Source: Euhalothece natronophila Z-M001 (GTDB lineage Bacteria > Cyanobacteriota > Cyanobacteriia > Cyanobacteriales > Rubidibacteraceae). Taken from it: DNA of 64,000 nucleotides. Location of the stretch: the NCBI RefSeq assembly GCF_007904085.1, contig NZ_CP042326.1, positions 2,976,001 to 3,040,000 on the forward strand. Direction: 5' to 3'. The notes under the pieces were generated by a model. The model saw nothing but the letters and a program-made list of their open reading frames with translations. It was not told the origin of the DNA and searched no databases. Positions within the stretch are counted from its first letter, which is position 1. Every line of letters begins with the position of its first letter. Shown piece by piece: positions 6,548 through 60,839 of the stretch. The position numbers and the translations under genes are program-made.

Positions 6548-8554
6548 TTAAAACCGTTCTCCAATGCCAAAATGAATGCGATTATCCCCTTGATCATTAA
6601 TCCCATAATCTAAGCGAAGAGGACCTAAAGGAGAATCAACTCTCACCCCTAAGCCATAACCGAAACCACTACCAGGCTTATCCCGAACCTCTGCCGGTTG
6701 TCCAGGAACATTACTACCAGTGCCTAAATCCGTTCCCACATCCACGAATAAAGCACCACCAATAATATCAAAAACGGGAAAACGATATTCAGCAGTTGCC
6801 TGGAGAAAACTACGTCCAGCTCCGACATCTCCTTGTTGATAACCTCGTACTGAGTTAGTCCCTCCTAAAGAAAACGCTTCATAGGGGGGTAAATCTCCAA
6901 AAACCGTTCCTGCTTGTACATTAAACGCTAAGGTTTCAGCGCCATCAGCAAAATTTGTCCAATCCACAGGGAAAAATTGACTGTAACCCGCTTCTAAGCG
7001 ATTAAAGAAAATACTCCCAGAGCCAATGGGAACTGATTGATCCACCCCTAGTCGTAAAACCGACCCACTTGTGGGTTGCCGAGGATTATCACGTAAATCG
7101 CGTCTTGCTCCTAACTCCAGCACCACCAAATCATCACGACCGCTTTCATCAAAGGATAATTGATTATCGTCTTCATCTCTAGGGGAAATCTGTCCATCAC
7201 TATCTTCAATTTGAACTCGTTGATAATTTAAGCCTGCGGAAACATTCCACTCAGCCCGAGTAAAGGGGTCTGGTGCTAAGGGACGCGCAAACTCAACTCC
7301 TCCACCTGTTCTAATCACTCGCGGGGTGTCACCATCAGGCAAAGTAACATTTGTTTCTCCACCGTCAAAAATCACCGAAAGAGAACGACGGCGGAATAAA
7401 TCAGCAGTATAAGACGTGCGATAAGGATCCCCAGCAATCCAAGGGTCTTGAAAACGAGCATTAAATAACAGCGTCCGACCACCCACTTGTAATTCTGTGG
7501 ATAAGTTTTGATTATTGCCACCTAAATTCTGTTCTTGGTAACTAACTGTGCCAAATAATCCTGTTGCAGAACTAACACCAGCCCCAGCACCAATTGAGCC
7601 AGTATCCCCTTCTACCATTTCAAAGTTAAGCACTACCTTACTGGGATCATCTCCCGGCTCAAAAGATAAATTACCATCTTCAAAAATTCCTAAGCCAAAA
7701 ACCCGCTCTAAATCAGCACGAGCCGTTTGCCGTCTAAACACATCCCCTGGTGAAAGTTCAACTTCTCGGGTAATAATAAAATCGCGAGTTCGCCCGTCTA
7801 TCTCTTCCCCAGTTTCATCAAGGAGACGAACTTGGATATCTTCAATGACTCCTTCAGCAACAGTAATGGTAACGACTCCATCTTCAGAAACTTCTGGAGA
7901 ATCCACTACTTGAGCAAGATCATATCCGTTTTCTTGATACCACTGATTTAACTGTTCGATATTATTTTGTAATTCTTGGAAATTGAGAAGTTCGCCATAT
8001 TGATCCCGAAATATTTCATCCACTACTTCATCTGGTAAAACTCTTTCTTCTTGATCAGCAGGAAGAGTATTTACTTGCACTTCTTCCAAAGTGGGGTTTG
8101 GCTCTACTACAAAAGTAACTCGAACCCCTAACGGGGTATCTTCTGGAACCACTCTCACATTAGAAAATAAACCAGTGGCAAAAATGGCATTCACATCTTC
8201 TTGTAATCGAGAACGAGTGGTTATTCGTCCTGGCTGGATATCTGTTGCATCAAAGACAATGTCCTCTAATTCTCCTTCTACCCCTTCTACATCTACCTCA
8301 ACGACCAGTACTTCTGGCTCATCTGCTGCGTCACCTTCAGGCATCTGCTGTTGGGGCGATTCCATCTCAGGAGGGGCTGGAGAGGGAGCTTCTTCCCCAT
8401 TACTGGGAAGCGCTGGTGAGGGATCTGTAGGAGCTTGAACTTGTAGCGCAGTCACTTCCTCTGGCTCTGATTGCGTCTCAGCATAAGCGACACCCTGCCA
8501 ACCGATGAAAGCAAGGACTGTCGCAGTTGAAATAATTGGAGATAAATGAGACAT
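6548..8554 (-). CDS. bamA: Omp85/BamA outer-membrane assembly factor
   Basis: This is the central subunit of the machinery that inserts beta-barrels into the outer membrane. It has a signal peptide (cut near GVAYAET), a Pro/Glu-rich linker to about residue 80, then POTRA domains (for example VLVVEVDVEGVEG, TFVVEPNPTLEEVQV and VTITVAEGVIEDIQV), and a 16-strand barrel from about residue 330 ending in IGERF with the expected C-terminal Phe. The barrel contains the conserved GGTNSVRGY motif. I prefer the ATG at 8554 (MSHLSP), which gives a clean leader; a GTG at 8578 is in frame upstream. The linkage to lpxC-fabZ-lpxA-lpxB is a known cyanobacterial order. Confidence 0.93.
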   Translation of the reverse strand: MSHLSPIISTATVLAFIGWQGVAYAETQSEPEEVTALQVQAPTDPSPALPSNGEEAPSPAPPEMESPQQQMPEGDAADEPEVLVVEVDVEGVEGELEDIVFDATDIQPGRITTRSRLQEDVNAIFATGLFSNVRVVPEDTPLGVRVTFVVEPNPTLEEVQVNTLPADQEERVLPDEVVDEIFRDQYGELLNFQELQNNIEQLNQWYQENGYDLAQVVDSPEVSEDGVVTITVAEGVIEDIQVRLLDETGEEIDGRTRDFIITREVELSPGDVFRRQTARADLERVFGLGIFEDGNLSFEPGDDPSKVVLNFEMVEGDTGSIGAGAGVSSATGLFGTVSYQEQNLGGNNQNLSTELQVGGRTLLFNARFQDPWIAGDPYRTSYTADLFRRRSLSVIFDGGETNVTLPDGDTPRVIRTGGGVEFARPLAPDPFTRAEWNVSAGLNYQRVQIEDSDGQISPRDEDDNQLSFDESGRDDLVVLELGARRDLRDNPRQPTSGSVLRLGVDQSVPIGSGSIFFNRLEAGYSQFFPVDWTNFADGAETLAFNVQAGTVFGDLPPYEAFSLGGTNSVRGYQQGDVGAGRSFLQATAEYRFPVFDIIGGALFVDVGTDLGTGSNVPGQPAEVRDKPGSGFGYGLGVRVDSPLGPLRLDYGINDQGDNRIHFGIGERF

Positions 8555-8655
8555 TCTAATTAGTTTTAACACTTCCACGCACCCAATCTATGATTGATTA
8601 TTAGCGATTGGTTATCTATAAAGAACCAATTAATCGCTATCTGCTATATTGTTTG

Positions 8656-9402
8656 CTATGACTCTTTAGTTGTCAATTGCAGTTGTGACAATATTCGGGT
8701 TTGCACTTGCTGATAGGCATTCTCCACTTTGCCTAAATCTTGGCGAAATCGATCTTTATCCATGACACGGGCTTCTGGATCAGGTTCATTTTGATCCCAT
8801 AAACGACAGGTATCAGGGCTAATCTCATCAGCTAATAAAAGATTCCCCTCTTTATCAAGTCCAAATTCCAACTTGAAATCTACTAGGGTAATGCCACATT
8901 GGCTAAAAAAGGTTTTCAGGTGAGTGTTGATAGCAAGAGCCTTAGTTTGTAGTTGTTCGAGTTGATTGAGGCTGGCAAGATTAAGAATTAGAATCCGATC
9001 GCGCGTTAAAATAGGGTCGCCAAGTTCATCTTTTTTATAATAAAATTCTACTAGAGGAAATGGCAAAATAGTGCCCTGCTCCAGTCCTGTTTCTCGACAT
9101 AGGCTACCTGCGGCAATGTTTCTCACCACAACTTCTAGAGGCAAGATAGTAACTGATTTTACTCGCATTTGCTGGGGGGTAGGTTGATCAAGATAGTGTG
9201 TGGCAAGTCCTTGGTTTTCTAAAAGCTGGAACAAGGCACTACTAATTCGACAATTGATTGCTCCTTTCTCTGTGATAGTGCCTCGTTTTTGGGCATTAAA
9301 AGCGGTGGCATCATCTTTGAAGTGGGTTAATAGAATCTCGGGATCCTCAGTGGAGTAAATAATTTTGGCTTTTCCTTCGTATAACTTTTCCATTTGCTTC
9401 AT
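8656..9402 (-). CDS. purC: SAICAR synthase (purine synthesis)
   Basis: PurC joins aspartate to CAIR with ATP in de novo purine synthesis. The 248-residue protein opens with LYEGKAKIIYST, the ATP-binding glycine loop of the family. It has FKDDATAFNAQK, VVVRNIAAGSLC and VDFKLEFG, then the DEISPDTCRLWD signature near residue 190. The Met at the fourth codon (MEKLYEGK, 9393) is an equally good start. The gene is transcribed toward bamA with an approximately 100-base gap. It is divergent from the small gene on the plus strand. Confidence 0.95.
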   Translation of the reverse strand: MKQMEKLYEGKAKIIYSTEDPEILLTHFKDDATAFNAQKRGTITEKGAINCRISSALFQLLENQGLATHYLDQPTPQQMRVKSVTILPLEVVVRNIAAGSLCRETGLEQGTILPFPLVEFYYKKDELGDPILTRDRILILNLASLNQLEQLQTKALAINTHLKTFFSQCGITLVDFKLEFGLDKEGNLLLADEISPDTCRLWDQNEPDPEARVMDKDRFRQDLGKVENAYQQVQTRILSQLQLTTKES

Positions 9403-9459
9403 CTACTGTTAAGTTACGCTAAAGTTGAACTAAAACTTCTTATTGGAGTCGTCTATAGT

Positions 9460-9732
9460 ATGGCAGAATATAACTCTGATAAAAAAAAAGAGAAAAACAA
9501 TTTCCTTTACCCACGTTACTCCTATCGTGGAGACGTTAAGCCTGAAAATATGATTTTTAATTCTAATTTACAAGAGTTTGCTCAGCGAGTGAATTATATT
9601 TGTAATTTAGAAACTGCTGGTAAAATGGACCCTGAAGAGGCTTATCAAGATATTAAGCAATTATGGAAGCAATTAAAATCTTCCCGCAAAAGTCTCGGCA
9701 TTAATGAGCAAAATAGTTCCTCTGATTCCTAA
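9460..9732 (+). CDS. Conserved small cyanobacterial protein (DUF7219-like)
   Basis: I know this only as a conserved cyanobacterial hypothetical of about 90 residues. The best start is the ATG giving MAEYNSDKKK; an earlier in-frame Met overlaps purC and is unlikely. The core reads FLYPRYSYRG, FNSNLQEFAQRV, YICNLETAGK and SPEEAY-like DPEEAYQDIK, followed by a basic helix KQLWKQLKSSRKSLGI and a Ser-rich tail. It is soluble with no leader. The function is unknown. Confidence 0.75.
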   Translation: MAEYNSDKKKEKNNFLYPRYSYRGDVKPENMIFNSNLQEFAQRVNYICNLETAGKMDPEEAYQDIKQLWKQLKSSRKSLGINEQNSSSDS

Positions 9733-9799
9733 AAGTTAGGGTAATTATCTACTCTTTTGTTTGTTTGTCCAAGTATTGATTTTTAGCACGTTAAGGTTA

Positions 9800-10180
9800 A
9801 TGACTAGCATTAGTAGCCCTTTATTTTGGCTAGCGCTTTCCCTATTTTTAGTCTCTGTCAGTCTCACGGCGGTGTTAATGGCTGCTTTTCCTGCATTTCT
9901 TGAGTTGGCTCGAGCTGCCCGTAATGCAGATAAGTTCATTGATACTTTACACCAAGAACTGCCCTCTACCCTAAAAGCAATTCGGCTAACCGGGGAAGAA
10001 ATTACTGAACTGACCAATGATGTGAATACCGGGGTAAAAAGTGCTTCCAAAACTGTCCAACAGTTCGACCAGGGAGTAACAACTGCTAAACATCAAGCAA
10101 AAGGGGTAAAAAAGCAAACTCAGGGAGTAATTACTGGTCTTAAAGTCGCTTGGAAAACTTGGCAAGGAAATCAAAGGTAA
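9800..10180 (+). CDS. DUF948-like membrane-anchored coiled-coil protein
   Basis: The 126-residue product from the ATG at 9800 has one N-terminal membrane helix (PLFWLALSLFLVSVSLTAVL), a second amphipathic stretch, and then a helical tail with TLHQELPSTLKAI and TNDVNTGVKSASK. This layout resembles DUF948/YtxH-like general-stress proteins. An earlier TTG at 9761 is possible but unsupported. It follows the previous small gene by 67 bases on the same strand and may be cotranscribed. The gene ends two bases before the argF stop, so the two are convergent. Confidence 0.7.
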   Translation: MTSISSPLFWLALSLFLVSVSLTAVLMAAFPAFLELARAARNADKFIDTLHQELPSTLKAIRLTGEEITELTNDVNTGVKSASKTVQQFDQGVTTAKHQAKGVKKQTQGVITGLKVAWKTWQGNQR

Positions 10181-10181
10181 C

Positions 10182-11093
10182 TTAATCTACGCCAAGTAAT
10201 TTTGCCAATAGAGCCTTCTGGGCATACATTCTATTCTCAGCTTGTTGCCAAACTCGGGATTGTGAAGATTCTAAGACGGCTTCAGTAATTTCTTCTCCCC
10301 GATGAGCTGGGAGGCAATGTAGAACAATTGCTTCTGATTGGGCTTGTTTTAAGAGCTTTTCATTAATTTGATAAGGCTGAAAAATTGGGAAGCGAGTGGT
10401 AGCCGAGTCTTCTTGCCCCATACTTGCCCAAACATCAGTATAAAGAATTTCTGCCCCTTTTACAGCCGCTTCCGCGTCAGTAGTAAGTACAATTTCAGTT
10501 TCTGAAGCTAAAGCCTTAGCTTGTTCAACAATCGTCGTATCTGGCTGGTATTCCTTTGGGGTCACTACTCGAATATTGACTCCAGCCATGGCACAGCCTA
10601 AAAGGAGTGAATGAGCAACATTGTTCCCATCACCCAAGTAGGTTAAAGTGAGTCCTTTTAATTGTCCAAAGGTTTCTTTAATGGTTAAAAGGTCAGCAAG
10701 AACTTGACAAGGATGAGCGCGATCGCTGAGAGCATTAATTATAGGAACTTGAGCGTAATGGGCAAAGGTTTCAAGCTCACTTTGAGCAAAGGTACGAATA
10801 GCAATTACATCTAAATATCCTGCTAAAACTCTAGCGGTATCCTGAATTGGTTCACCGCGTCCTACTTGCATAAATTGGGGGTTTAAGTCAATAACTTGAC
10901 CCCCTAGTTGGTACATGGCAACACTAAAAGAGACTCGCGTTCGAGTAGAAGCCTTATAAAATAATAGTCCTAATACTTGCTTTGAGGGCAACTGGGGACT
11001 GTATCCCCCTTTCATTTTTTGCGCTAAGTCCAATAAGGCTTGTAATTCGGTTTGATTGCAGTCAGTGAGACTGAGTAAATTTCTTCCCTTCAT
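10182..11093 (-). CDS. argF: Ornithine carbamoyltransferase
   Basis: ArgF makes citrulline from ornithine and carbamoyl phosphate in arginine synthesis. The 303-residue protein carries the carbamoyl-phosphate loop STRTRVSFS (about residues 50-58), HPCQVLADLL in the middle, and the ornithine loop with HCLPAHRGEEI near residue 260. Length and motifs are complete. It is divergent from hemC, with about 196 bases between the two starts that must hold both promoters. Confidence 0.95.
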   Translation of the reverse strand: MKGRNLLSLTDCNQTELQALLDLAQKMKGGYSPQLPSKQVLGLLFYKASTRTRVSFSVAMYQLGGQVIDLNPQFMQVGRGEPIQDTARVLAGYLDVIAIRTFAQSELETFAHYAQVPIINALSDRAHPCQVLADLLTIKETFGQLKGLTLTYLGDGNNVAHSLLLGCAMAGVNIRVVTPKEYQPDTTIVEQAKALASETEIVLTTDAEAAVKGAEILYTDVWASMGQEDSATTRFPIFQPYQINEKLLKQAQSEAIVLHCLPAHRGEEITEAVLESSQSRVWQQAENRMYAQKALLAKLLGVD

Positions 11094-11289
11094 GGGTGAT
11101 TCAATCGGGTTAGTTATGTGTTAAGCGAGGTATTTCCTGAATATAGCTTACCAAGGCTTCGAGAATAACTGTTAGTAAGCTGAACCAACTCTTGAGCCAA
11201 GCGAGAGGAATCAGTTGCTGAAAAGTTATTCAGAACTTAAGCATTTGTATGTAAGAATGTAAAGTGGGTGAAATTAACTTAAAGGTAAG

Positions 11290-12255
11290 ATGACAGTAAC
11301 GACCTCTTCTGGCAGTAAACTGGTTCGCATTGGCACAAGAAAAAGTAATTTAGCAATGGTGCAAACCCATTGGGTACGGGATGAACTACAAAAACATTTT
11401 CCTGATCATCAGTTTGAAATACAAGCGATGAGTACCCAAGGGGATAAAATTCTTGATGTTGCCCTTTCTAAAATTGGTGATAAAGGACTCTTTACCAAAG
11501 AATTAGAGTTAGGGTTACTGAATGAGGATGTAGATTTAGCAGTTCATTCTCTTAAAGATTTACCGACACAACTGCCAGAAAACTTAATGTTAGGCTGTGT
11601 TACCAGTCGCGAAAATCCCGCCGATGCTTTGGTTTTAAATGAGAAAAATCAAGGCTATACCATTGAGACGTTGCCAGAAGGGGCAATTGTGGGAACATCC
11701 TCTCTTCGTCGGTTAGCGCAATTACGGTATCATTTCCCTTATCTTGAATTTAAAGATGTACGAGGAAATCTCAATACTCGGTTGAAGAAACTAGATGCGG
11801 GAGACTACGATGCCCTAGTATTAGCTGTAGCAGGGTTAGAACGGTTAGGAATGGCCGATCGCGTTTCCCAATGTATCCCAGGGGATATTTCCCTTCACGC
11901 CGTCGGACAAGGGGCTTTAGGCATTGAATGTCGAGAAGGAGATCAACGGATTTTAGACTTATTAAAAGCGATTGAAGATGACAAAACGCGCGATCGAACT
12001 CTTGCTGAACGATCCTTTTTAAGAGAATTAGAAGGAGGCTGTCAAGTTCCCATTGGGGTTAATAGTTGGATAGAAGGAGATCAATTAACCTTAAAAGGAA
12101 TGGTGGCAAGTCTCGATGGTAAACAATTGCTAAAAGATACAGTTAGCAGCGATCGCGCAAATTATGACAACATAGGAAAAGAATTAGCGCAGAAAGTGAG
12201 AGATCAGGGCGCACAAGCCATTTTAGATGAAATTTTTGCCCAAATTGACCGTTAA
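11290..12255 (+). CDS. hemC: Porphobilinogen deaminase
   Basis: HemC polymerises four porphobilinogens to hydroxymethylbilane, feeding heme, chlorophyll, bilins and corrinoids. The 321-residue protein opens with [11 protein letters not shown], has [10 protein letters not shown] and VGTSSLRR for substrate binding, and carries the dipyrromethane cofactor Cys in [10 protein letters not shown] near residue 250. The start is supported by AAAGG seven bases upstream. It is about 100 bases before dnaK on the same strand, but this gap contains promoter-like AT-rich sequence, so the genes are not obviously one operon. Confidence 0.96.
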
Positions 12256-35575: not shown

Positions 35576-36412
35576 ATGGAAACTAAAATTGAAACTAAAC
35601 AGCTAAAAATGCTTCTCAAACTTCTAGGCGAAGAAGGATATAACGCTAAAATTAGAGCAGTGAAACCTAACTCTAAAAGTACAATTTCAGAATGTAATCG
35701 GATTTGTTATCAATTGCGCGATCGCGGTTGGGTTGATTTAACTGAAACCATCGAAAAAATTAAAATCACGCCTTCGGGAAAAGCTCTACTTAAGGTTGAT
35801 CCTTCAGAAGTCCCGATGAGTAAGAAAGAACTCAAAATTCTCAACCGTTGTCAATCGAGAACAATAAAAACGACCGAAGCTGAGACTAAAGTAAAACCTA
35901 CTGAAGAACGGAATAAGCTAATTAACAGTTTAATTGATCGTGGCTTTATTGCCGTCGCGCAAGCCAAGCCCGAAACCATTACTCTAAACGAAGCAGGAAA
36001 ACACTTTCTCTTAAAGGAATATAACCCTAAGGGAACAAGTCCAACATTTACTTTAGATATGTTGGGGAATTACATTAACTTTTTACGCCAACATCAATCT
36101 TCCGTGATAACAGAGACAAAACCCGAACCAGATCATCATCAATTAAGCGATTCCGAAATTTTGGAGTTAATTATTCAATTAGATAAAGAATACAATACCA
36201 ATAATTATTTACCGATATTCTACTTACGGGATAAACTCCAACCCCCATTAAAAAGAGAGGAACTCGATCAAGCCCTTTATCGTTTAGAAGAAAATGACAA
36301 AATCCAGTTAAGTTCTTTAACTGAAGCAGAACACTATACTCAAAAACAAATACAAGCAGGGATCCCACAACCTATTGGTGGTTCTTTATTTTTCATACAA
36401 GTCGTTCGCTAA
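35576..36412 (+). CDS. Multi-winged-helix protein of the accessory nuclease operon
   Basis: I do not recognise a named family. The 278 residues contain three segments that look like winged-helix units. These are ETKQLKMLLKLLGEEGYNAK with GWVDLTETIEKIKITPSGKALL; a second with RNKLINSLIDRGFIAV and ITLNEAGKHFLL; and a third with LPIFYLRDKLQ and LDQALYRLEENDKIQL. It is soluble. It is followed 11 bases later by an AAA ATPase and then the nuclease-translocase fusion, so it probably gives DNA recognition or partner contacts. The coding sequence is AT-rich. Confidence 0.7.
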   Translation: METKIETKQLKMLLKLLGEEGYNAKIRAVKPNSKSTISECNRICYQLRDRGWVDLTETIEKIKITPSGKALLKVDPSEVPMSKKELKILNRCQSRTIKTTEAETKVKPTEERNKLINSLIDRGFIAVAQAKPETITLNEAGKHFLLKEYNPKGTSPTFTLDMLGNYINFLRQHQSSVITETKPEPDHHQLSDSEILELIIQLDKEYNTNNYLPIFYLRDKLQPPLKREELDQALYRLEENDKIQLSSLTEAEHYTQKQIQAGIPQPIGGSLFFIQVVR

Positions 36413-36423
36413 CTTTTTCAAAT

Positions 36424-38253
36424 ATGTCAGACTTAGATACAATTATTAAACAATCTATTAATCCTTTTGACACAGTTAGTTTTAAACAAGGGAACTTTTG
36501 GGAAGAAGAGCAATCACCAACATTAACGGTTAATTCGATTCACCAAGAGGAAATTAAATCAATTGCAACAACATTAGCACAAGTAGCAAAGGATAAAACA
36601 AGTCGTACAATTTTATTAAAAGGAGATAGCGGTTCTGGAAAAACTCATCTTTTAGGTCAACTTAAGAAAAAATTAAATAATAAAGCCTTTTTTGCCCATA
36701 TTATTGCGTCCATTCAAAATGATTATATCTTTCAATATACACTTCGTAAAACAATTGAAAGTTTAATGTTTATTCCAGAGGGGGAAAAAGAATCACAATT
36801 ACTCTTATGGTTAAAAAACATTATTAACAAGCAAAATAAAGGAGTTTTCGAGAAATTACAAGGACAACAAAAAGCCTTTGTTAGTAATATGAAGGCAGCT
36901 TATCCCAGTGGTATATGGAAGCCAAATGCCTTTTTTAGGGTTTTGTACGCTTTAACACAACCTGAATTATATTATATCGCTTGTGATTGGTTAAAAGGAG
37001 ATGACATTGATGAGGAAGATGCTAAAGCCTTAGGAACAAAAGAAAGAATTAAAACAGAACAAGATGCTATTGATGTTCTCGCTAGTTTTAGTCGTATTTC
37101 AAGTTCAACACTCCCCATTGTATTATGTTTTGATGAAATTGATATCAGTAATAATCGGAAAGACTTACTAGAGTCAATTCTTAAATTAAACATGATCATT
37201 AAAACTCAGAAATTGAAAAACTTTCTGGTCATTGTTAGCGTCATTACTGATACATGGCAATCTTATGAGGGGTTTATAGAGTCATCTTTAAAATCCCCCA
37301 TTAATCAAACGATCAATTTAAAGCCAATCACATCAGAACAAATTAAATCATTATGGTCAACTCGTCTTTCTCCTTTACATCAGCAAGTTCAACCTCAGCC
37401 TAAGTCTAATATTGCACCTTTAACTGAACAAGATTTAAGGTTGTATTTTCCTAGTGGAAAAGGCAATCCCAGAAGTGCTTTAAGAGCTGGTCATCAGCTT
37501 ATTCAAAAGTACAAAACAGGTCAAATTATTGAACCTGATGCGATTGCCTCCTTTAAGTTACTTTGGCAAGAAGAATTAAATAAGAATGAAAGTAATATAA
37601 AACAGGTTAGCCAATTATCTTCTGCTGAATTAATTAATATGCTAAAAAACGTAATGGAAGCCTTACAAGTAAGTTCCATTCAATTTGATATTTTTAATAA
37701 AGGAAACTCTTTTGCTACTAAGTCATTTTATTATTTTGATCGTTTTAGTAACAAAATCGGAGTTATTTGGTATGAAGAGGCTAATCTCGGAAGTTTTTGT
37801 ACATTAATGAAATCTTGTGAAAAATTATTAAATGATAAATTATATCAAAAATTAGTTTTAATTCGGGCTAGAAGTATTGGCAACAAAAAAAATAAAGGCT
37901 ATAAGCTATACCAAAAAATATTTAATTTTTCTCCCAATTATCATATTATTCCAGACTTAAAATCAGTGCAAATTTTAGCCACTTACCACAATCTTTATAG
38001 TTATGCTACAAATAAAAATTTAACTGTAGGCTATGAAAACCCAAATATTATTAGACTGCAAGAGTTAGTTTGTCAAGCTGGCGTTTTGAAAAATTGTGAT
38101 TTGCTAAAGGGATTAAATCTTATCCAGAAAGATGAAGAATTTAGCAATTATAATCATAAGGATGAAGATAAGAATAATAATAAAAATAACAATGAGGATG
38201 ATAATCCACCGAATCAAGACCTAGGAAAATTCAGGAATTTCTATCAAATTTAG
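36424..38253 (+). CDS. AAA-type ATPase, frameshifted near its 3' end
   Basis: This is a P-loop ATPase of the ORC/Cdc6-AAA type. The 609 residues have Walker A GDSGSGKTH at 67-75, Walker B VLCFDEIDI at about 234-242, and a sensor/Arg region GKGNPRSALRAG near 350. The end of the frame (Asn/Asp/Lys-rich from about 577, then FRNFYQI) looks like out-of-frame translation. In the -1 frame an uninterrupted stretch runs from about 38205 to a stop at 38435 and encodes a further winged-helix-like domain. The restored gene would be about 670 codons and end eight bases before the next start codon. The middle member of a three-gene operon. Confidence 0.75.
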   Translation: MSDLDTIIKQSINPFDTVSFKQGNFWEEEQSPTLTVNSIHQEEIKSIATTLAQVAKDKTSRTILLKGDSGSGKTHLLGQLKKKLNNKAFFAHIIASIQNDYIFQYTLRKTIESLMFIPEGEKESQLLLWLKNIINKQNKGVFEKLQGQQKAFVSNMKAAYPSGIWKPNAFFRVLYALTQPELYYIACDWLKGDDIDEEDAKALGTKERIKTEQDAIDVLASFSRISSSTLPIVLCFDEIDISNNRKDLLESILKLNMIIKTQKLKNFLVIVSVITDTWQSYEGFIESSLKSPINQTINLKPITSEQIKSLWSTRLSPLHQQVQPQPKSNIAPLTEQDLRLYFPSGKGNPRSALRAGHQLIQKYKTGQIIEPDAIASFKLLWQEELNKNESNIKQVSQLSSAELINMLKNVMEALQVSSIQFDIFNKGNSFATKSFYYFDRFSNKIGVIWYEEANLGSFCTLMKSCEKLLNDKLYQKLVLIRARSIGNKKNKGYKLYQKIFNFSPNYHIIPDLKSVQILATYHNLYSYATNKNLTVGYENPNIIRLQELVCQAGVLKNCDLLKGLNLIQKDEEFSNYNHKDEDKNNNKNNNEDDNPPNQDLGKFRNFYQI

Positions 38254-38435
38254 TTAAAACTCAGCTATTTATTGGCAGACAAGCGGTAATTGATAAAACT
38301 TTAAGCCAATTTCAAGATGAAGTAAGTCAAGAAGAGATTGATCGCGCTCTCAAAACCTTAATTGATGAACAACAGATTAAAATTATCAATCCTCAAGCTA
38401 AACCAGAAGAACAAAGCATTTGCTTACCAAAATAA
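38205..38435 (+). pseudogene. Out-of-frame winged-helix tail of the AAA ATPase gene
   Basis: This frame (offset by -1 from the ATPase) has no start codon of its own, yet reads as good protein: KIQEFLSNLVKTQLFIGRQ, then AVIDKTLSQF, EEIDRALKTLIDEQQIKII and a stop. The pattern (helix, helix, recognition helix, wing) resembles a winged-helix domain like those in the first gene of the operon. The shift must fall between about 38205 and 38250. The cause could be a real mutation, a base-call error, or recoding. Confidence 0.65.
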
Positions 38436-38443
38436 AACAAAAA

Positions 38444-40969
38444 ATGTATTTTAATCAGCCTGAAAGCATTAAAGAGATCATCAACAAGCTCCGCGGATTT
38501 TCTATTCTCTGGTTAGATACAGAAATCGCCGATTGGCAAACCTCTAATCCTAAACTCTCCCTGATTCAAGTTTTGAGTGATCCGAAGGAAACCTCAGGAA
38601 ATAATGCTTATGTTTTAGATGTGTTAGAAAAGCCTGAATTAATTAATCTGTTTATCCAGCAGATTATAAGAGAAGCAACCATTGAAAAGGTGTTTCATAA
38701 CGCTGCCTTTGATCTAAAATATTTAGAAAAGGATACAGCCAAAAATATTACCTGTACTTATAAAATTGCTCAAAAGATATCAAAAAAGAATCTAGGAACG
38801 TCTAATCTTAAACTTAAAACCCTTGCCATTGAACTTTGTCAATTTTCCAAAAATGAAGTTGATACGCAACAGCAGACAAGTGACTGGGGTACACGCCCGC
38901 TGAGTGAAAAGCAATTATATTATGCTGAAATGGATGTTGTGTATTTAGCTCATGTTCATCAGTATTTACTCAATTTTAAGCCAATGTCAGATCAAAACTC
39001 TTTTCCTAAATTTACGGTTAGTGATGTTCGAGTTGCATTTGAATGTCCTCGCTTATTTTATTTAAGTAAGCACTTTGGTGGTAGAACATTATTTGTTCCT
39101 AGTAATCAACCGAAAGGAATTGGTCAACCCTTTCATAAATTGGCTGATAAATTTATTAAACTAGCTAAAACAAATCCTGAGTTTAAAGAACTTTTTAAGC
39201 CTAGTGCTAAAGACTTAGATGTTGAATACATTTCTCAAGAGATGCAACGTCTTTTTTATGAACAGACTTTTTTCCCTATTTTAGAGAAAGTTGCCACAAG
39301 TAAACCTGAAACTGTTCCTGCTTTGCAACAAGTGTGGGAAGGGTTAAGAGGATTAATTAACCATTGGGCTGAATTATTAGTGAGTAATCGCTTTTACTCC
39401 AATTACCATAATGTCATTAGTAAAACTTTTGTCTCGCAAGAACTTTCAATGACTTGTGATTATCCCCTCCCGAAAAAGAAAACGCAAAAAATCGAAGGAA
39501 AATTTGACACTTTAATCCGTGACTTAAAAAAAGATCGCTTTTGCATGGTTGAGTATAAAACCTACGCGCCCGTTGATTCTGCTGCCCAGTTAGCACAGGT
39601 TGCTTTATACAGTTATATTTTACATTTACAGAAACAACAGCCAGTAGATAGTGCCGTTTATTGTGTTTTACCTGAGTTTAAAAATTATTACTATACTTGG
39701 GAAGAGCTCAAAGATACGGTTCACGAATTAACTCCATTTAAACTTCAACAAATGCGAGATTGGCTACAATGGGAGCCATCACAACCTGATCCACCGCCTG
39801 AAACCAATCAGCCTGAAAAACTTTGCCCAATTTGTCCACAAAAAGAAACGTGTCAAAGTTATTTCCCAAAAGAAAATCAAATTATTCCTTCACCTGCAGT
39901 AGAAAAAGAAGAAGAAATAATAACTCCTTCCGATGAGCCTATTGAAACTGAAGAATTAGGAAAGCAATTAGAAAACATTTTACAGGCTTATGGGGTTGGT
40001 GTGGACTATCAAGGGGCAATTGTTGGTGCGTCATTTATTCGATTAAAATTAAAACCTCATTTAGGGGTAAAAGTAGTTTCTATTCTGAATCGGGCGACAG
40101 ATATTCAAGTTCAAATGGGGTTGTCTAATTTACCATTGATTGCGCCTCAAGCAGGTTATATTAGTGTTGATTTGCCCCGAGAAAAGCGTCAAGTTCTTCC
40201 ATTTCAAGATTATATTCAGAGAGAAAATAATGGTTTTGACATTAAAATTGCTATTGGTGTTGATTTAGAAGGAAAGCTAATTGAAGCAGACTTATCTGAT
40301 GCGAATACTTGCCACTTTTTAGTGGGAGGAGGAACAGGAAGTGGTAAAAGTGAGTTTCTCAAATCTCTGGTATTAAGTTTAATTGAACGCCATACACCAG
40401 AACAGGTAAAAATTGCACTAGTTGATCCGAAACGGGTAACATTCCCTGATTTTGAAAATAGTGATTGGTTAATGTCTCCAATTATTAAGGAGCGCGATCG
40501 CGCTATTGAATTTATGGAAGAATTAGTAAGCAAAATGGAGGAACGTTATCACCTTTTAGAAAAGGCAAAATGTGCTGATCTCAAACGTTATAATCAACAG
40601 TTAACTCAACAAGGAAAAAACCCTGTTCCCCATTTAGTCTGTGTTTTTGATGAATATGCCGATTTTATGGCAGATAAAGAAATTGCCAAACAACTCGAAT
40701 CTAGTATTAAACGGCTAGGGGGAATGGCGAGAGCAGCAGGGATTCATTTAATTATCTCTACACAACGCCCAGAAGCTAAAATTGTCACTCCCATTATTCG
40801 ATCTAATCTTCCCGGACGAGTCGCTTTAAAAACCAATAGCGAAGGAGATTCCAAGATTATTTTAGGGGGAAATCAAACTGAAGCCGCTTATTTATTAGGA
40901 AAAGGAGACTTACTATATTTAGGAAGTGGAAACCTGTTACGTTTACAAAGCCTCTTAGCTTCTACCTAA
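38444..40969 (+). CDS. Triple fusion: DEDD 3'-5' exonuclease, Cas4-like nuclease, FtsK translocase
   Basis: I start the gene at the ATG giving MYFNQPES, for 841 residues; a TTG lies eight codons upstream. Domain 1 (about 5-180) is an RNase D-like DEDD exonuclease: LDTEIAD (Asp25, Glu27), NAAFDLKYL (Asp90) and YAEMDVVYL (Asp164). Domain 2 (about 190-480) is a Cas4/RecB-like PD-(D/E)XK nuclease with Fe-S cysteines: ECPRLFY (Cys201), His231, EGKFDTLI (Asp355), VEYKTY (Glu370, Lys372) and CPICPQKETC (Cys461, 464, 470). Domain 3 (about 500-841) is an FtsK alpha plus motor region with GGGTGSGKS at 628-636 and VFDEYADF. All active sites look intact. There is no FtsK gamma domain and no membrane segment. 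Confidence 0.85.
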   Translation: MYFNQPESIKEIINKLRGFSILWLDTEIADWQTSNPKLSLIQVLSDPKETSGNNAYVLDVLEKPELINLFIQQIIREATIEKVFHNAAFDLKYLEKDTAKNITCTYKIAQKISKKNLGTSNLKLKTLAIELCQFSKNEVDTQQQTSDWGTRPLSEKQLYYAEMDVVYLAHVHQYLLNFKPMSDQNSFPKFTVSDVRVAFECPRLFYLSKHFGGRTLFVPSNQPKGIGQPFHKLADKFIKLAKTNPEFKELFKPSAKDLDVEYISQEMQRLFYEQTFFPILEKVATSKPETVPALQQVWEGLRGLINHWAELLVSNRFYSNYHNVISKTFVSQELSMTCDYPLPKKKTQKIEGKFDTLIRDLKKDRFCMVEYKTYAPVDSAAQLAQVALYSYILHLQKQQPVDSAVYCVLPEFKNYYYTWEELKDTVHELTPFKLQQMRDWLQWEPSQPDPPPETNQPEKLCPICPQKETCQSYFPKENQIIPSPAVEKEEEIITPSDEPIETEELGKQLENILQAYGVGVDYQGAIVGASFIRLKLKPHLGVKVVSILNRATDIQVQMGLSNLPLIAPQAGYISVDLPREKRQVLPFQDYIQRENNGFDIKIAIGVDLEGKLIEADLSDANTCHFLVGGGTGSGKSEFLKSLVLSLIERHTPEQVKIALVDPKRVTFPDFENSDWLMSPIIKERDRAIEFMEELVSKMEERYHLLEKAKCADLKRYNQQLTQQGKNPVPHLVCVFDEYADFMADKEIAKQLESSIKRLGGMARAAGIHLIISTQRPEAKIVTPIIRSNLPGRVALKTNSEGDSKIILGGNQTEAAYLLGKGDLLYLGSGNLLRLQSLLAST

Positions 40970-41087: not shown

Positions 41088-43904
41088 ATGATTAGTTTTT
41101 TAACTAAGTCCAAATTGTTATCAGCTTCTCAATGTCAGAAACGTCTATGGCTGGAAACGTATCAGGGAGAAGCAAGAGAAGAACTTTCCTATAGTCAACA
41201 GCGACGCATTGAACAAGGCTTGGAAGTGGGAGCTTATGCTCGTCAGTATTTTCCCCAAGGAACCCTCATTGAAGGTGAAACCATCGAAGATCAAATTGAG
41301 CAAACACAAAACGCCATAGAAAAAGGTGAAAAATGTTTATTTGAAGCCACCTTCATGTTCGATAATATTGTTATACGATGCGACATTCTCCTACGAGAAG
41401 AATCAGACAAATGGCAACTCATTGAAGTTAAATCATCGACGAAAGTAAAAGATGAACATCTCCAAGATTTAGCAATTCAAAAATATGTGTTAGCTGGGAA
41501 TGATCTCTTCCTAAGTAATATCCAAGTAATGCATATTAACAGGGATTGTGTTTATCCAGACTTCTCCAATTTATTGATCAGAGAAGACGTGACTCAGCAA
41601 ATAAAAGGAGTCTTTTCTAATCTTCCTCAACTGATTCGTCATTCCCAAAACACTTTAGAGAGAGAGGAAATTCCTGATATTAACATCGGGAAACATTGCG
41701 AAAAGCCTTATCCCTGTCCATTTAAATCTTTTTGTTGGGAAGGAATCGAAGAGCCAACTATTTTAAGCATTCCCAACTTGAGAGGAAGAAGACTGGATCA
41801 AATTAATGACTTGATCGCACAAGGAATCTATAGTTTGCGCGATTTACCTGAGGATTTTCCGCTAACAGAGAAGCAAGCCGAAGCAGTGAGAGAAAAACTC
41901 AACCCTGAATTAATGATTAATGAACAGGGGATTTTAGAGAAATTTTCACAGTTAGAGTATCCGCTTTATTTCTTCGATTTTGAAACCCTTGATCCAGCGA
42001 TTCCCCGCTTTGAAGGATTACAACCTTATCAACATTTCCCGTTTCAATATAGTTGTCATATTCTCCATCAAAATGGCGAGTTAGAGTATCACACTTATTT
42101 ACACGAAAATGAAACTGATCCCAGAGAAAAAGTTATTGAATCCCTGTTAGAGACGCTAGGGGAAAAAGGCTCAATTATTGTTTACTATCAGTCTTTTGAA
42201 GCGCAACGTTTGGGAGAATTAGCCGAGCAATTTCCAGAGTATAGCACGCAGTTAAATCAGATTAAAGAACGGTTATGGGATCAATGGAAAATTTTTAAAG
42301 ATGACTATCAGCACCCAGACTTTGGCGGTTCAACCTCTCTAAAAAAAGTGTTACCTGTCTTAGTTCCAGAAATGAGTTACGACAACTTAGATATACAGGG
42401 AGGAGACGAGGCGCAAGCGCTCTGGGATTTAGTGATTCAGGGAAAAGCTGGTAATCAAAGAGAGAAAATGCTCGCCGATTTAAAGGCTTATTCTGAACAA
42501 GATACTTATGCCATGGTAGCGATTCACCAGATTTTTATTAATCAAATTCTTCCTGAAATGGAAGGAATAACTAATGAACTCTTAGAAAAGCTTAAAATCG
42601 TAACAGAACATTCTGCTGGACTCGAAACACTGAAAGAAAACTTAAACAGCGCTGATCAAGAAATACGACTCATTGCATTACACCAACTTCATAACTACGG
42701 TGAAGAGGGGTTAAAATTATTAGATTTAGTGAGTTTAGAAGATAGAGAAAAACTAGCTCAAGATAAAGCCACGTCAGAAGAAATTTTATCTTGTCTTGCT
42801 AATGATCAAAGTTCGTGGATTCGCGAACAAGTGGCAAGTAACGAGAAGACTCCTGATTACCTTCTCGAAAGACTAGCAGAAGATGAACATTATCGGGTAC
42901 GCGCAGAAGTGGCAATCAACCAGAAGACTCCGTTGACAGTTTTGGACTGGCTTATTGTTGATGCTGATTATGATGTAGTAGAGGCAGTTCTGGATCATCC
43001 TAGTTATTCAGTACACCGTTTACAAAAAATCGCTAGCGATCCAAACACTCCAGAGGAGTTCTTTGAAAAACTCGCTAATTGTGGAGACCCTAAAATTTGT
43101 CTTCAAGTTGCTAATAATACCGACATTTCACCAAAGTTACGAGAAAATTTATTAGAAAACTTCCTGGAAAGCGATATTGAAGAGGAAGAAGAAGTAGCTA
43201 CTTGGTTACGGGAAATAGCCAGCGACCCCAAAACTCCAGAGGAATTACTTGAGAAACTTGCTAATAGTAAAAACTTGACAGTGTGTCTTGAAGTTGCCAA
43301 AAATCCCAATACATCAGAAGAATCACTTGAGAAACTTGCTAAAAATGAACACTGGGAAGTGCGTCTTGAAGTTGCTAAAAATCCCTATATTTCACCTGAA
43401 TTACTGGAAATTCTAGAGGATGATGAAGATTTGGATGTACGAGAAGAAGTTGCTTTTCAGAAGCTGGATATGCAAGAAATTGACTCGGATTTAGAGAAGC
43501 TGATTTACCACGATTATGATGAAGATCTTGCAGAAAGGTTAGACGAACTTTCTCCAAGAGTGCTGAGATCCCTCGCATGGTCTATCAATCCCGAAATTGG
43601 TGAGAGTATCGCAAAATATAAAAATCTTCCATCACAAATATTAGAAGAGTTGGCTTTTGAATCCCCAGTTTTTGTACGAGCTGAGATAGCGGGAAGAAGT
43701 GATCTCTCAAACGAAATTTTTAATAAGTTAGCGACTGATGAAGATACTGAAGTACGCGCACGAGTGGCAAGAAACCAGAAGACTCCTGCTCCAATTTTAG
43801 AAAAACTAGCAGAAGATGAACATCATTGGGTACGCGAAGAAGTTGCTGCTAATCCTAATACTCCTAATTACGTTCTAGAAAAACTAGCAAATGATCCAAA
43901 TTAA
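41088..43904 (+). CDS. DUF2779-type Cas4-like nuclease/DEDD exonuclease with LRV repeats
   Basis: The 938-residue protein starts with a Cas4/RecB-like nuclease: Cys16 (SASQCQKRLW), Asp99 (VIRCDILL), Glu113/Lys115 (LIEVKSST) and Cys204/210/216 (HCEKPYPCPFKSFC). A DEDD exonuclease of DUF2779 type follows at about 290-490: FFDFETLD (Asp297, Glu299), YYQSFEA and YSEQDTY (Asp472). From about 565 to the end there are ten or more leucine-rich-variant repeats of the form LAxDxxxxVRxxVAxNxxTPxxxLExL. The LRV superhelix is probably a binding platform. It is 118 bases after the FtsK fusion gene, on the same strand. Confidence 0.85.
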   Translation: MISFLTKSKLLSASQCQKRLWLETYQGEAREELSYSQQRRIEQGLEVGAYARQYFPQGTLIEGETIEDQIEQTQNAIEKGEKCLFEATFMFDNIVIRCDILLREESDKWQLIEVKSSTKVKDEHLQDLAIQKYVLAGNDLFLSNIQVMHINRDCVYPDFSNLLIREDVTQQIKGVFSNLPQLIRHSQNTLEREEIPDINIGKHCEKPYPCPFKSFCWEGIEEPTILSIPNLRGRRLDQINDLIAQGIYSLRDLPEDFPLTEKQAEAVREKLNPELMINEQGILEKFSQLEYPLYFFDFETLDPAIPRFEGLQPYQHFPFQYSCHILHQNGELEYHTYLHENETDPREKVIESLLETLGEKGSIIVYYQSFEAQRLGELAEQFPEYSTQLNQIKERLWDQWKIFKDDYQHPDFGGSTSLKKVLPVLVPEMSYDNLDIQGGDEAQALWDLVIQGKAGNQREKMLADLKAYSEQDTYAMVAIHQIFINQILPEMEGITNELLEKLKIVTEHSAGLETLKENLNSADQEIRLIALHQLHNYGEEGLKLLDLVSLEDREKLAQDKATSEEILSCLANDQSSWIREQVASNEKTPDYLLERLAEDEHYRVRAEVAINQKTPLTVLDWLIVDADYDVVEAVLDHPSYSVHRLQKIASDPNTPEEFFEKLANCGDPKICLQVANNTDISPKLRENLLENFLESDIEEEEEVATWLREIASDPKTPEELLEKLANSKNLTVCLEVAKNPNTSEESLEKLAKNEHWEVRLEVAKNPYISPELLEILEDDEDLDVREEVAFQKLDMQEIDSDLEKLIYHDYDEDLAERLDELSPRVLRSLAWSINPEIGESIAKYKNLPSQILEELAFESPVFVRAEIAGRSDLSNEIFNKLATDEDTEVRARVARNQKTPAPILEKLAEDEHHWVREEVAANPNTPNYVLEKLANDPN
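42790..43895 (+). repeat. Tandem LRV protein repeats
   Basis: The repeats are diverged at DNA level but regular at protein level, roughly 24 residues each or multiples of that. Examples are TPDYLLERLAEDEHYRVRAE, TPEELLEKLANS and TPAPILEKLAEDEHHWVREE. Some units are degenerate between about 43430 and 43600. Confidence 0.65.
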
Positions 43905-60559: not shown

Positions 60560-60654
60560 CCTCTTGTCACTTCCCCCCCATCACAAGTTATGATCAAAAC
60601 TAAACACAGGTACTTACTGCAACGTTGGTGACTGCCAATAATGTTTTTTGATCT

Positions 60655-60839
60655 ACAAGTAAGACCTATAAGGGAACCAACCCCTCTTGTGGCAGTAAAC
60701 CGGGCATAGTACCCGGAAACTTAAAGCAAGATGTCGGTGCCCACCTGACAACAGGAAGGTCAGAAGCTGAGGTAAAACGGCGTTGCGGTAATTAAAGAAA
60801 CTACCCTCTTAGCATTGTGCTAGGGGGGTTGTTTTGTTA
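60655..60839 (+). ncRNA. ssaA: Probable 6S RNA
   Basis: This approximately 185-base unit has no open frame and strong structure. CAACCCC (60678-60684) can pair with GGGGTTG (60825-60831) to close the molecule. Inside are CCGGG/CCCGG (60700-60716) and a conserved-looking GTCGGTGCCCACCTG. The length and a closing stem with internal bubble fit cyanobacterial 6S RNA, the regulator of RNA polymerase. I identify it from length, structure and recall of the GGTGCCCACCT segment, not from alignment. It lies between cyAbrB and an M16 peptidase gene. Confidence 0.55.
60804..60839 (+). terminator. Intrinsic terminator of the 6S-like RNA
   Basis: CCCTCTTAGCA and TGCTAGGGGGG form an 11-bp stem (two G-U pairs) on a three-base loop, followed by TTGTTTTGTTA. 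This is a textbook terminator and fixes the 3' end of the RNA. Confidence 0.8.

What the first reader, a model, noticed from the sequence alone, without database searches (positions are those of the whole stretch)
35576..40969. Candidate undescribed system: winged-helix protein, AAA ATPase and exonuclease-Cas4-FtsK fusion
Three genes lie on one strand with gaps of about 11 and 8 bases. They encode a multi-winged-helix protein, an AAA ATPase with an extra winged-helix tail, and a fusion of DEDD exonuclease, Cas4-like Fe-S nuclease and FtsK motor. A DNA-recognising ATPase module coupled to a motor-driven double nuclease would suit invader DNA destruction or recombination-end processing. The combination does not match Dnd/Dpt, BREX, Wadjet, Zorya, Druantia or HerA systems as I know them. 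The block is AT-rich, with about two exact HIP1 copies in 8.4 kb.
Basis: partly seen in the sequence, partly recalled or inferred. Interest (0 to 1): 0.88.

Follow-up and report, generated by a model that had tools for sequence, protein, structure and literature searches.

The report
Predicted cyanobacterial DNA-destroying defence operon
Three neighbouring genes in a cyanobacterium encode a DNA-binding protein, an origin-recognition-like ATPase and a motor protein carrying two nucleases; together they look like a machine for finding and destroying invading DNA, of a class already predicted in print but, as far as was found, not yet tested.

Summary
The three genes are real. ORF1 (35576-36412) has three winged helices; ORF2 (36424-38253) is an ORC/Cdc6-like AAA+ ATPase; ORF3 (38444-40969) is a DEDD exonuclease + Cas4-type nuclease + FtsK-alpha + FtsK motor. 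One correction: the winged-helix tail of ORF2 is out of frame here (38205-38435), so the "8-base gap" exists only across a frameshift that relatives lack. The order ORF1-ORF2-ORF3 holds in 65 of 69 testable cyanobacterial loci. 39 of 41 ORF3-bearing genomes of 386 also have ORF2, three of them unlinked. The module is patchy, plasmid-borne once, differently placed in two congeners and sometimes decayed. It is not SspFGH (only the motor is shared). It fits a class predicted in 2024, the Orc/Cdc6-type "HerA/FtsK capture" systems (PMC10853773). So: a well-conserved, apparently untested member of a published predicted kind. Features seen here: the ORF2 Walker B glutamate is Q, N or H in 87 of 90 readable copies; the exonuclease is dispensable but the Cas4 site is lost in 1 of 96 sequences, from a genome with a separate Cas4 gene upstream. 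Enrichment near known defence genes was inconclusive.

The parts
35576..36412 (+). ORF1, 278 aa, three winged-helix-like units (about residues 1-75, 80-150, 190-276, read from the secondary structure); putative DNA-recognition subunit
   Evidence: AF2 mean pLDDT 91; MarR-like wHTH, best Z 10.8, rmsd 2.4, 72 aligned; Foldseek alone gave no match at E<=0.001
36424..38253 (+). ORF2, 609 aa open frame, ORC/Cdc6-like AAA+ ATPase (AAA about residues 1-369, Walker A K73, Walker B D237-E238)
   Evidence: (orc1/cdc6 model E 6.6e-8, far below its own cut-off)
37606..38148 (+). middle alpha/beta region of ORF2; order of elements would fit an REase-like fold, no ExK motif seen; candidate inactive REase
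   Evidence: secondary structure of the L122 homologue 400-530; sequences; Pfam finds nothing; inconclusive
38205..38435 (+). tail of ORF2 (winged-helix-like pattern in the L122 homologue), in a different frame from ORF2 in this genome; in frame in relatives
38444..40969 (+). ORF3, 841 aa (ATG 38444), exonuclease-nuclease-motor fusion
38453..38971 (+). DEDD-type 3'-5' exonuclease domain (D25, E27, D90, D164), NrnC/diDNase/RNase D-like
39011..39856 (+). Cas4-like PD-(D/E)xK nuclease with four cysteines (D355, E370, K372; C201, C461, C464, C470); that the cysteines bind an Fe-S cluster is inferred from the Cas4 family
39926..40177 (+). FtsK-alpha domain
   Evidence: PF17854, E 2.1e-8
40217..40966 (+). 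FtsK/SpoIIIE motor domain (Walker A GGGTGSGKS, Walker B VFDEYAD)

Best explanation
The operon encodes a modification-independent anti-invader DNA machine of the 'HerA/FtsK capture' type. ORF1 (three winged helices) and the ORC-like AAA+ ORF2 recognise and encircle or mark particular DNA, perhaps an origin, replication or transfer intermediate of an invader. In most family members ORF2 works as an ATP-bound switch or clamp rather than a fast hydrolase. The assembled site recruits ORF3; its FtsK motor pumps DNA past the Cas4-type nuclease, which makes the essential cut, while the fused DEDD exonuclease, where present, trims 3' ends. Shown here: gene order, domains, conserved catalytic residues, co-occurrence, patchiness and mobility. 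Inferred: DNA recognition, complex formation, slow hydrolysis, target, defence function. The window's own copy may be impaired by the frameshift that separates ORF2 from its tail.
For: Order ORF1-ORF2-ORF3 in 65 of 69 loci with at least 3.6 kb of contig upstream of ORF3 (80 loci fetched; 10 cut by contig ends, L076 fell out of the table). ORF2 in 39 of 41 ORF3 genomes against 7 of 345 others (not corrected for kinship); the two exceptions, G024 and G042, hold only C-terminal ORF3 fragments. In G051, G231 and G099 ORF1-ORF2 and ORF3 lie apart on one contig, yet both are kept. Cas4 site over 96 ORF3 sequences (redundant copies included): four cysteines 96 of 96, D355 95, E or D370 96, K372 95; the one exception, L131, has a separate Cas4 ORF with these residues upstream. 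Mobility: three-gene copy on a plasmid typed as conjugative, of Pseudanabaena PCC 7367; none of the six window neighbour genes tested lies within the 17-kb stretches around the module in the congeners G119 and G366; ORF3 is closer to G119 (82%, residues 151-840) than to G366 (72%), while AccA is closer to G366 (93 against 90%). Partial copies at one site in family f6. Class predicted as anti-invader in PMC10853773.
Against: No experiment. The neighbour test was inconclusive: PADLOC models at E<=1e-10 were hit in 118 families by 134 near proteins and in 50 families by 148 far ones, but one protein can hit many models, the number of proteins hit is not given, and only 25 families of each list were shown (near: Cas12f/TnpB-like 3, Csx1 2, PDC-S03 2, mad2 2, one each DpdE/ZorD helicase and type IIG; far: mad3 2, one each PD-T4-6, MzaA, LmuB and others). 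In family f6 the module often sits at one conserved site, which also fits long vertical residence of a housekeeping function. The window copy carries a frameshift. The inactive-REase part and the kinship of ORF1 with DndG/SspB/FokI could not be shown.
Confidence: 0.7

Rival explanations
1. A chromosome or plasmid maintenance or DNA-repair machine: ORC-like loader plus FtsK motor resolves or trims DNA ends at replication termini or during natural transformation; not immunity.
For: FtsK-alpha and motor resemble cellular FtsK (2iuu E 6.3e-67); a + strand ParA-like gene (label by eye from its P-loop motif) occurs in 39 of the 80 fetched loci, and ParA-like and/or ParB-like genes on the opposite strand lie within 2.7 kb of the module in 13 of 80.
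Against: Present in 41 of 386 genomes at E<=1e-60, no match in the congener G324, partial copies; the 294-aa ParA-like gene is found in 14 of 14 genomes tested, 9 without and 5 with a full module, so it is not tied to it.
Confidence: 0.17
2. A cargo or selfish module that uses the motor-nuclease to exclude competing plasmids or elements (inter-element competition), carried by plasmids and islands.
For: Copy on a conjugative plasmid; different positions in congeners; GC lower than the window.
Against: Only 1 plasmid record of 72,556 carries ORF2 at E<=1e-3; many copies sit at one chromosomal site in family f6; no integrase was identified as part of the module.
Confidence: 0.12
3. A diverged SspFGH system dependent on phosphorothioate marks.
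For: PADLOC SspH is the best defence hit of ORF3 (207.9 bits); an ORF2 profile scores L137 SspF at E 0.0036, 5.4 bits.
Against: The SspH match is confined to the FtsK part (model 1410-1736 of 1766); the SspF match is confined to the P-loop region (profile 32-77) and hhalign gives at most 4.1% for SspF; no significant match to SspG; the long N-terminal part of SspH has no counterpart; no SspD homologue in the own genome.
Confidence: 0.01

Closest known systems
'HerA/FtsK capture' systems, Orc/Cdc6 class (Krishnan et al. 2024, PMC10853773; predicted by comparative genomics)
   Same: Orc/Cdc6-like AAA+, active REase-fold nuclease, HerA/FtsK with FtsK-alpha, separate multi-wHTH protein, 3'-5' exonuclease fused to FtsK
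   Different: The inactive REase domain and the wHTH nature of the tail are only suggested here; which of their two active REase families holds the Cas4-like four-cysteine nuclease could not be read (figure and supplement not held); Walker B loss in this ORF2 family is not in the sections read, which mention a disrupted Walker B for a second Orc/Cdc6 protein of other neighbourhoods
SspFGH (PMC8092258, passages seen)
   Same: three genes, one with Walker A, one with a C-terminal FtsK motor
   Different: ORF1 and ORF2 unrelated to SspG and SspF beyond a P-loop; no SspH N-terminal part; exonuclease and Cas4 domains instead; no SspD in the own genome
DndFGH
   Same: triple wHTH subunit plus an FtsK/HerA nuclease protein (from PMC10853773)
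   Different: no Dnd model among the PADLOC hits of the three ORFs at E<=0.1
NrnC/diDNase dinucleases (PMC11706625, passages seen)
   Same: closest solved relatives of the exonuclease domain (9qrf E 9.3e-17)
   Different: here fused to Cas4 and FtsK

Membership tests
HerA/FtsK capture system, Orc/Cdc6 class | Orc/Cdc6-family AAA+ ATPase | tested here: met
   Foldseek best 1fnn Cdc6 E 3.7e-6; VIA: RdrA 8hr8 Z 13.8 (rmsd 6.4, 277 aligned), ORC1 7tji Z 13.2 (3.7, 242), TnsC 7mcs Z 13.1 (4.4, 262), tied
HerA/FtsK capture system, Orc/Cdc6 class | C-terminal wHTH on the AAA+ protein | tested here: inconclusive
   helix-strand pattern at 592-659 of the L122 homologue would fit a wHTH, not searched alone; in the window the stretch is out of frame
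HerA/FtsK capture system, Orc/Cdc6 class | inactive REase domain between AAA+ and wHTH | tested here: inconclusive
   alpha/beta region at 400-530, no ExK in the ten sequences printed, no Pfam hit for two stretches; domain could not be folded and searched alone
HerA/FtsK capture system, Orc/Cdc6 class | active REase-fold nuclease | tested here: met
   PDDEXK_1 2.1e-13; catalytic residues and four Cys conserved; activity itself not tested
HerA/FtsK capture system, Orc/Cdc6 class | active nuclease belongs to one of the two families named by the authors | not testable with these tools
   figure and supplementary data not held
HerA/FtsK capture system, Orc/Cdc6 class | HerA/FtsK motor, one set with FtsK-alpha | tested here: met
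   PF01580 and PF17854
HerA/FtsK capture system, Orc/Cdc6 class | subset: extra protein with 2-4 wHTH related to DndG/SspB/FokI | tested here: inconclusive
   three wHTH-like units met; kinship with DndG/SspB/FokI not shown
HerA/FtsK capture system, Orc/Cdc6 class | subset: 3'-5' exonuclease fused to FtsK | tested here: met
   PF01612 1.4e-26
HerA/FtsK capture system, Orc/Cdc6 class | anti-invader activity | not testable with these tools
   needs phage or plasmid challenge
SspFGH | SspF and SspG homologues | tested here: not met
   against two cyanobacterial loci (14 proteins): ORF2-SspF BLASTP E 0.038 at best and profile E 0.0036 (5.4 bits), P-loop only, hhalign at most 4.1%; ORF1 gives no BLASTP hit to SspG at E<=10 and hhalign at most 0.4%
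SspFGH | SspH with long N-terminal region and C-terminal FtsK | tested here: not met
   only the FtsK part matches significantly
SspFGH | phosphorothioate-modification genes (SspBCD, IscS) alongside | tested here: not met
   SspD: no match at E<=1e-10 in G000, G119, G366 or G298; present in G118, G004 and G338; SspB, SspC and IscS not sought
Wadjet | MksE/JetB-like subunit with SMC and nuclease partners | tested here: not met
   ORF1 hits MksE below cut-off (23.5 against 27 bits, 49 residues); no SMC model among the hits of the three ORFs
BREX | BrxC ATPase with PglZ and methyltransferase | tested here: not met
   ORF2 BrxC/D 17.3 bits, below cut-off 22.2; no PglZ or methyltransferase among hits of the three ORFs and the next gene

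The most novel reading that the evidence does not exclude
An ORC-like AAA+ that mostly binds but does not efficiently hydrolyse ATP (natural Walker B E to Q, N or H in 87 of 90 readable copies) acts with a triple-winged-helix partner as an 'invader origin-recognition complex': it marks replication or transfer origins of invaders and loads an FtsK-Cas4 motor that destroys the DNA without any self-modification mark. ORF1-ORF2 would be a general recognition module with exchangeable effectors, as the ORF1-ORF2 pair without ORF3 in G107 and the ORF1-ORF2-ORF2' operons in G002 and G116 suggest.
Probability: 0.25. Interest if true: 0.75.

Novelty: new member of a known kind. Interest (0 to 1): 0.45.

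Why it matters
It gives a compact, strongly conserved three-gene version of a predicted and apparently untested defence class (the titles and abstract starts listed by searches show no experimental study of it), with clear active-site residues to mutate. If it works, it shows restriction by a motor-nuclease without a DNA modification mark, and ties origin-recognition-type ATPases to immunity in cyanobacteria.

Tried and rejected
SspFGH membership: rejected. Wadjet and BREX: only sub-threshold hits. The 294-aa ParA-like gene as a fourth subunit: rejected, since it is found in 14 of 14 genomes chosen with (5) and without (9) a full module. Viral copies: of 99 pattern-matching stretches in viral contigs none is a relative of ORF2; the 20 phage hits listed for ORF3 (of 183 records) cover only the C-terminal part, from residue 451 on. 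PDB sequence search with ORF2 alone gave nothing, and as a profile only weak matches at E 0.19 or worse, mostly P-loops; with ORF1 mainly wHTH proteins, best E 3.8e-5. Absence from VIA lists is not used as evidence: DndG, SspB and FokI are not in the 50 rows shown for ORF1. FtsK motor tree (17 sequences, FastTree): ORF3 copies split from SspH, phage, plasmid and cellular FtsK at 0.99, with weak inner support; a small sample. An IQ-TREE run gave no tree and was not repeated. Defence-island test: inconclusive. A search for cyanobacterial defence papers listed nothing of use; PMC10907252 holds none of the terms sought.
Full report
What is there. Three + strand ORFs lie at 35576-36412, 36424-38253 and 38444-40969. 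Pfam finds AAA_16 (and KAP_NTPase) above cut-off in ORF2, and in ORF3 a 3'-5' exonuclease, a PD-(D/E)XK nuclease, FtsK-alpha and FtsK/SpoIIIE. ORF1 has no Pfam hit above its cut-off; an AF2 model from a 55-row alignment (mean pLDDT 91) shows three winged-helix-like units. Foldseek gave no match at E<=0.001; VIA matches single MarR-like wHTH domains (7wze Z 10.8, rmsd 2.4, 72 aligned). The block is AT-rich (33.9% against 40.6% GC) with 2 of the window's 41 HIP1 sites, but four other HIP1-free runs of 4.2-4.7 kb exist in the window.

A frameshift. The tail attributed to ORF2 is encoded in another frame, open 38205-38435. In the relative L122 (77% identical over residues 1-599) ORF2 is a single 662-residue frame, and the DNA alignment places the length differences in the low-complexity linker before the tail. 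Of the 58 ORF2 matches in a 386-genome search, 56 end at profile position 679-683; the window copy ends at 616 and a G383 fragment at 119; the stops-inside column reads none for all 58. Whether the shift is a mutation, a programmed event or a sequencing error is not known.

Conservation. A genome-contig scan found 141 relatives of ORF3 and kept the best 80 loci, all with cyanobacterial names in their titles, best-segment identity 51-58%. Of these, 69 have at least 3.6 kb upstream of ORF3, and 65 of the 69 carry ORF1-ORF2-ORF3 in order. The four misses are L025 (ORF2 but no ORF1), L074, L082 (ORF1 and ORF2 further upstream) and L083. Ten loci were cut by contig ends and L076 fell out of the table. 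In two searches of 386 cyanobacterial genomes, drawn the same way and with coinciding handles, ORF3 matches in 41 at E<=1e-60 and ORF2 in 46 at E<=1e-20; 39 have both, and the two ORF3-only genomes hold C-terminal fragments. Fisher p is 8e-44 without correction for kinship. In G051, G231 and G099 ORF1-ORF2 and ORF3 lie apart but both persist.

Residues. Over 96 ORF3 sequences (redundant copies and one stand-alone Cas4 included) the four Cas4 cysteines are invariant, D355 holds in 95, E or D at 370 in 96 and K372 in 95. Twelve of the 96 have no residue at D25/E27, and L074 has others there. Of the twelve, some are exo-less in an open frame (plasmid L138, L129, L080, L081), L122 is broken in the exonuclease, L131_1 is the stand-alone Cas4 and L073 starts at a contig end. 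In L131 ORF3 has D355N and K372E and carries a kinase-like insert (the window's own kinase gene matches it, 36%, E 1e-34; sequence), while a separate Cas4 ORF of 287 aa that keeps these residues (D at 370) lies upstream of ORF1. The Cas4 site is thus what selection keeps. In ORF2 Walker A K73 holds in 89 of 89 readable copies, but the Walker B glutamate is Q in 53, N in 33, H in 1 and E in only 3 of 90 readable copies, all three from the window's genus. That E-to-Q at this position slows hydrolysis is recalled knowledge.

Structure of ORF2. The L122 homologue folds with mean pLDDT 86.4. Its AAA+ part resembles RdrA (8hr8 Z 13.8, rmsd 6.4, 277 aligned), ORC1 (7tji Z 13.2, 3.7, 242) and TnsC (7mcs Z 13.1, 4.4, 262), which are tied; Foldseek ranks Cdc6 first (1fnn E 3.7e-6). 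The region 400-530 is alpha/beta and may be an inactive REase domain, which was not proven; Pfam is silent. The tail has a winged-helix-like order of elements, not tested further.

Mobility and decay. In the congeners G119 and G366 none of the six window neighbour genes tested lies in the 17-kb stretch around the module. The window's left neighbour NnrU is present in all six genomes tested and has no module beside it in the stretches opened in G119, G366 and G324. ORF3 identity ranks G119 (82%) over G366 (72%), AccA the reverse (90 and 93%). A three-gene exo-less copy sits on plasmid pPSE7367.01, typed as conjugative, of Pseudanabaena PCC 7367 (Pseudanabaenales by its record), whereas all 41 genomes with ORF3 belong to the window's own order. 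Of nine such sites in genomes without a full module, G070 keeps ORF2 only and G042 and G024 keep ORF3 ends, each beside a longer ParA-like gene on the other strand; G072 has such a gene and no module part; G066, G076, G019, G089 and G085 show no module part. In G197 a ParA-like gene and a ParB-like one follow an ORF3 cut to its exonuclease. This is gain and loss as expected of accessory systems, defence among them. The neighbour test does not decide: PADLOC models of 118 families are hit by 134 near proteins (of 180 clusters) and of 50 families by 148 far ones (of 155), but one protein can hit many models, the number of proteins hit is not given and 25 families per list were shown.

What it is. 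The best PADLOC match is the SspH motor; mad8, HerA and Cas4 models hit single domains. Two cyanobacterial SspFGH loci were compared: ORF1 has no counterpart there, ORF2 matches SspF only weakly at the P-loop (profile E 0.0036, 5.4 bits) and ORF3 shares only alpha plus motor. The own genome has no SspD homologue at E<=1e-10. The published description that fits is in PMC10853773, section 22 (read in full) and section 26: Orc/Cdc6-coupled HerA/FtsK capture systems, with an FtsK-alpha set, a multi-wHTH gene in a subset and a fused 3'-5' exonuclease in others, predicted by comparative genomics to intercept invader DNA. The 2026 BREX paper (PMC12839542, passages seen) repeats the model. Searches listed no experimental paper on this class by title and abstract start; subscription papers are not in that library.

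Mechanism. Most likely ORF1 and ORF2 recognise invader DNA, ORF2 acting as an ATP-gated clamp or switch, and recruit ORF3, whose FtsK motor feeds DNA to the Cas4 nuclease; the exonuclease is an accessory trimmer. Domains, order, residues and co-occurrence are shown; recognition, assembly, target and defence are inferred.

Noticed in passing
L004, L006, L012, L017, L027, L029, L036, L053, L055, L056, L069, L073, L077; L174, L175, L176, L178, L190: A longer ParA-like and/or a ParB-like gene (labels by eye; sometimes with a third small HTH-like gene) lies on the opposite strand within 2.7 kb of the module in 13 of 80 loci, on both sides in L053. Such a gene also stands where parts of the module are missing in G070, G042, G024 and G197; it may belong to a mobile unit that disrupts the module.
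   Followed up: partly
L131:3925-4788 and 8511-11873: Variant with a kinase-like stretch between exonuclease and a degenerate Cas4 domain, plus a separate Cas4 ORF with the catalytic residues upstream of ORF1.
   Followed up: partly
L183:7918-12903, L184:5169-10358, L080:1758-6877: ORF1-ORF2-ORF2' operons; in L183 and L184 without ORF3 beside them, in L080 directly upstream of a full module; tandem ORF2 copies also in L056 and L069.
   Followed up: partly
L189:8570-11406: Diverged ORF1-ORF2 pair in G107, which has no ORF3 match: the pair may serve another effector.
   Followed up: partly
window 41088-43904: RecB-like nuclease (TM0106 family model, below its cut-off) with DUF2779 and leucine-rich-variant repeats next to the module; a broken copy lies about 30 kb from the module in G119.
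   Followed up: partly
L135:7463-17432, L137:1770-16930: Cyanobacterial SspFGH loci with SspD-like and IscS-like genes; in L137 SspF carries a long N-terminal extension with kinase-like matches.
   Followed up: partly
L168:3431-5509: The closest motor outside the family in the comparison set is a cyanophage FtsK-like protein (Cylindrospermopsis phage Cr-LKS4, 38.6% over 337 residues).
   Followed up: partly
window 60611-60795: 6S RNA gene (Rfam RF00013, 97.3 bits).
   Followed up: no
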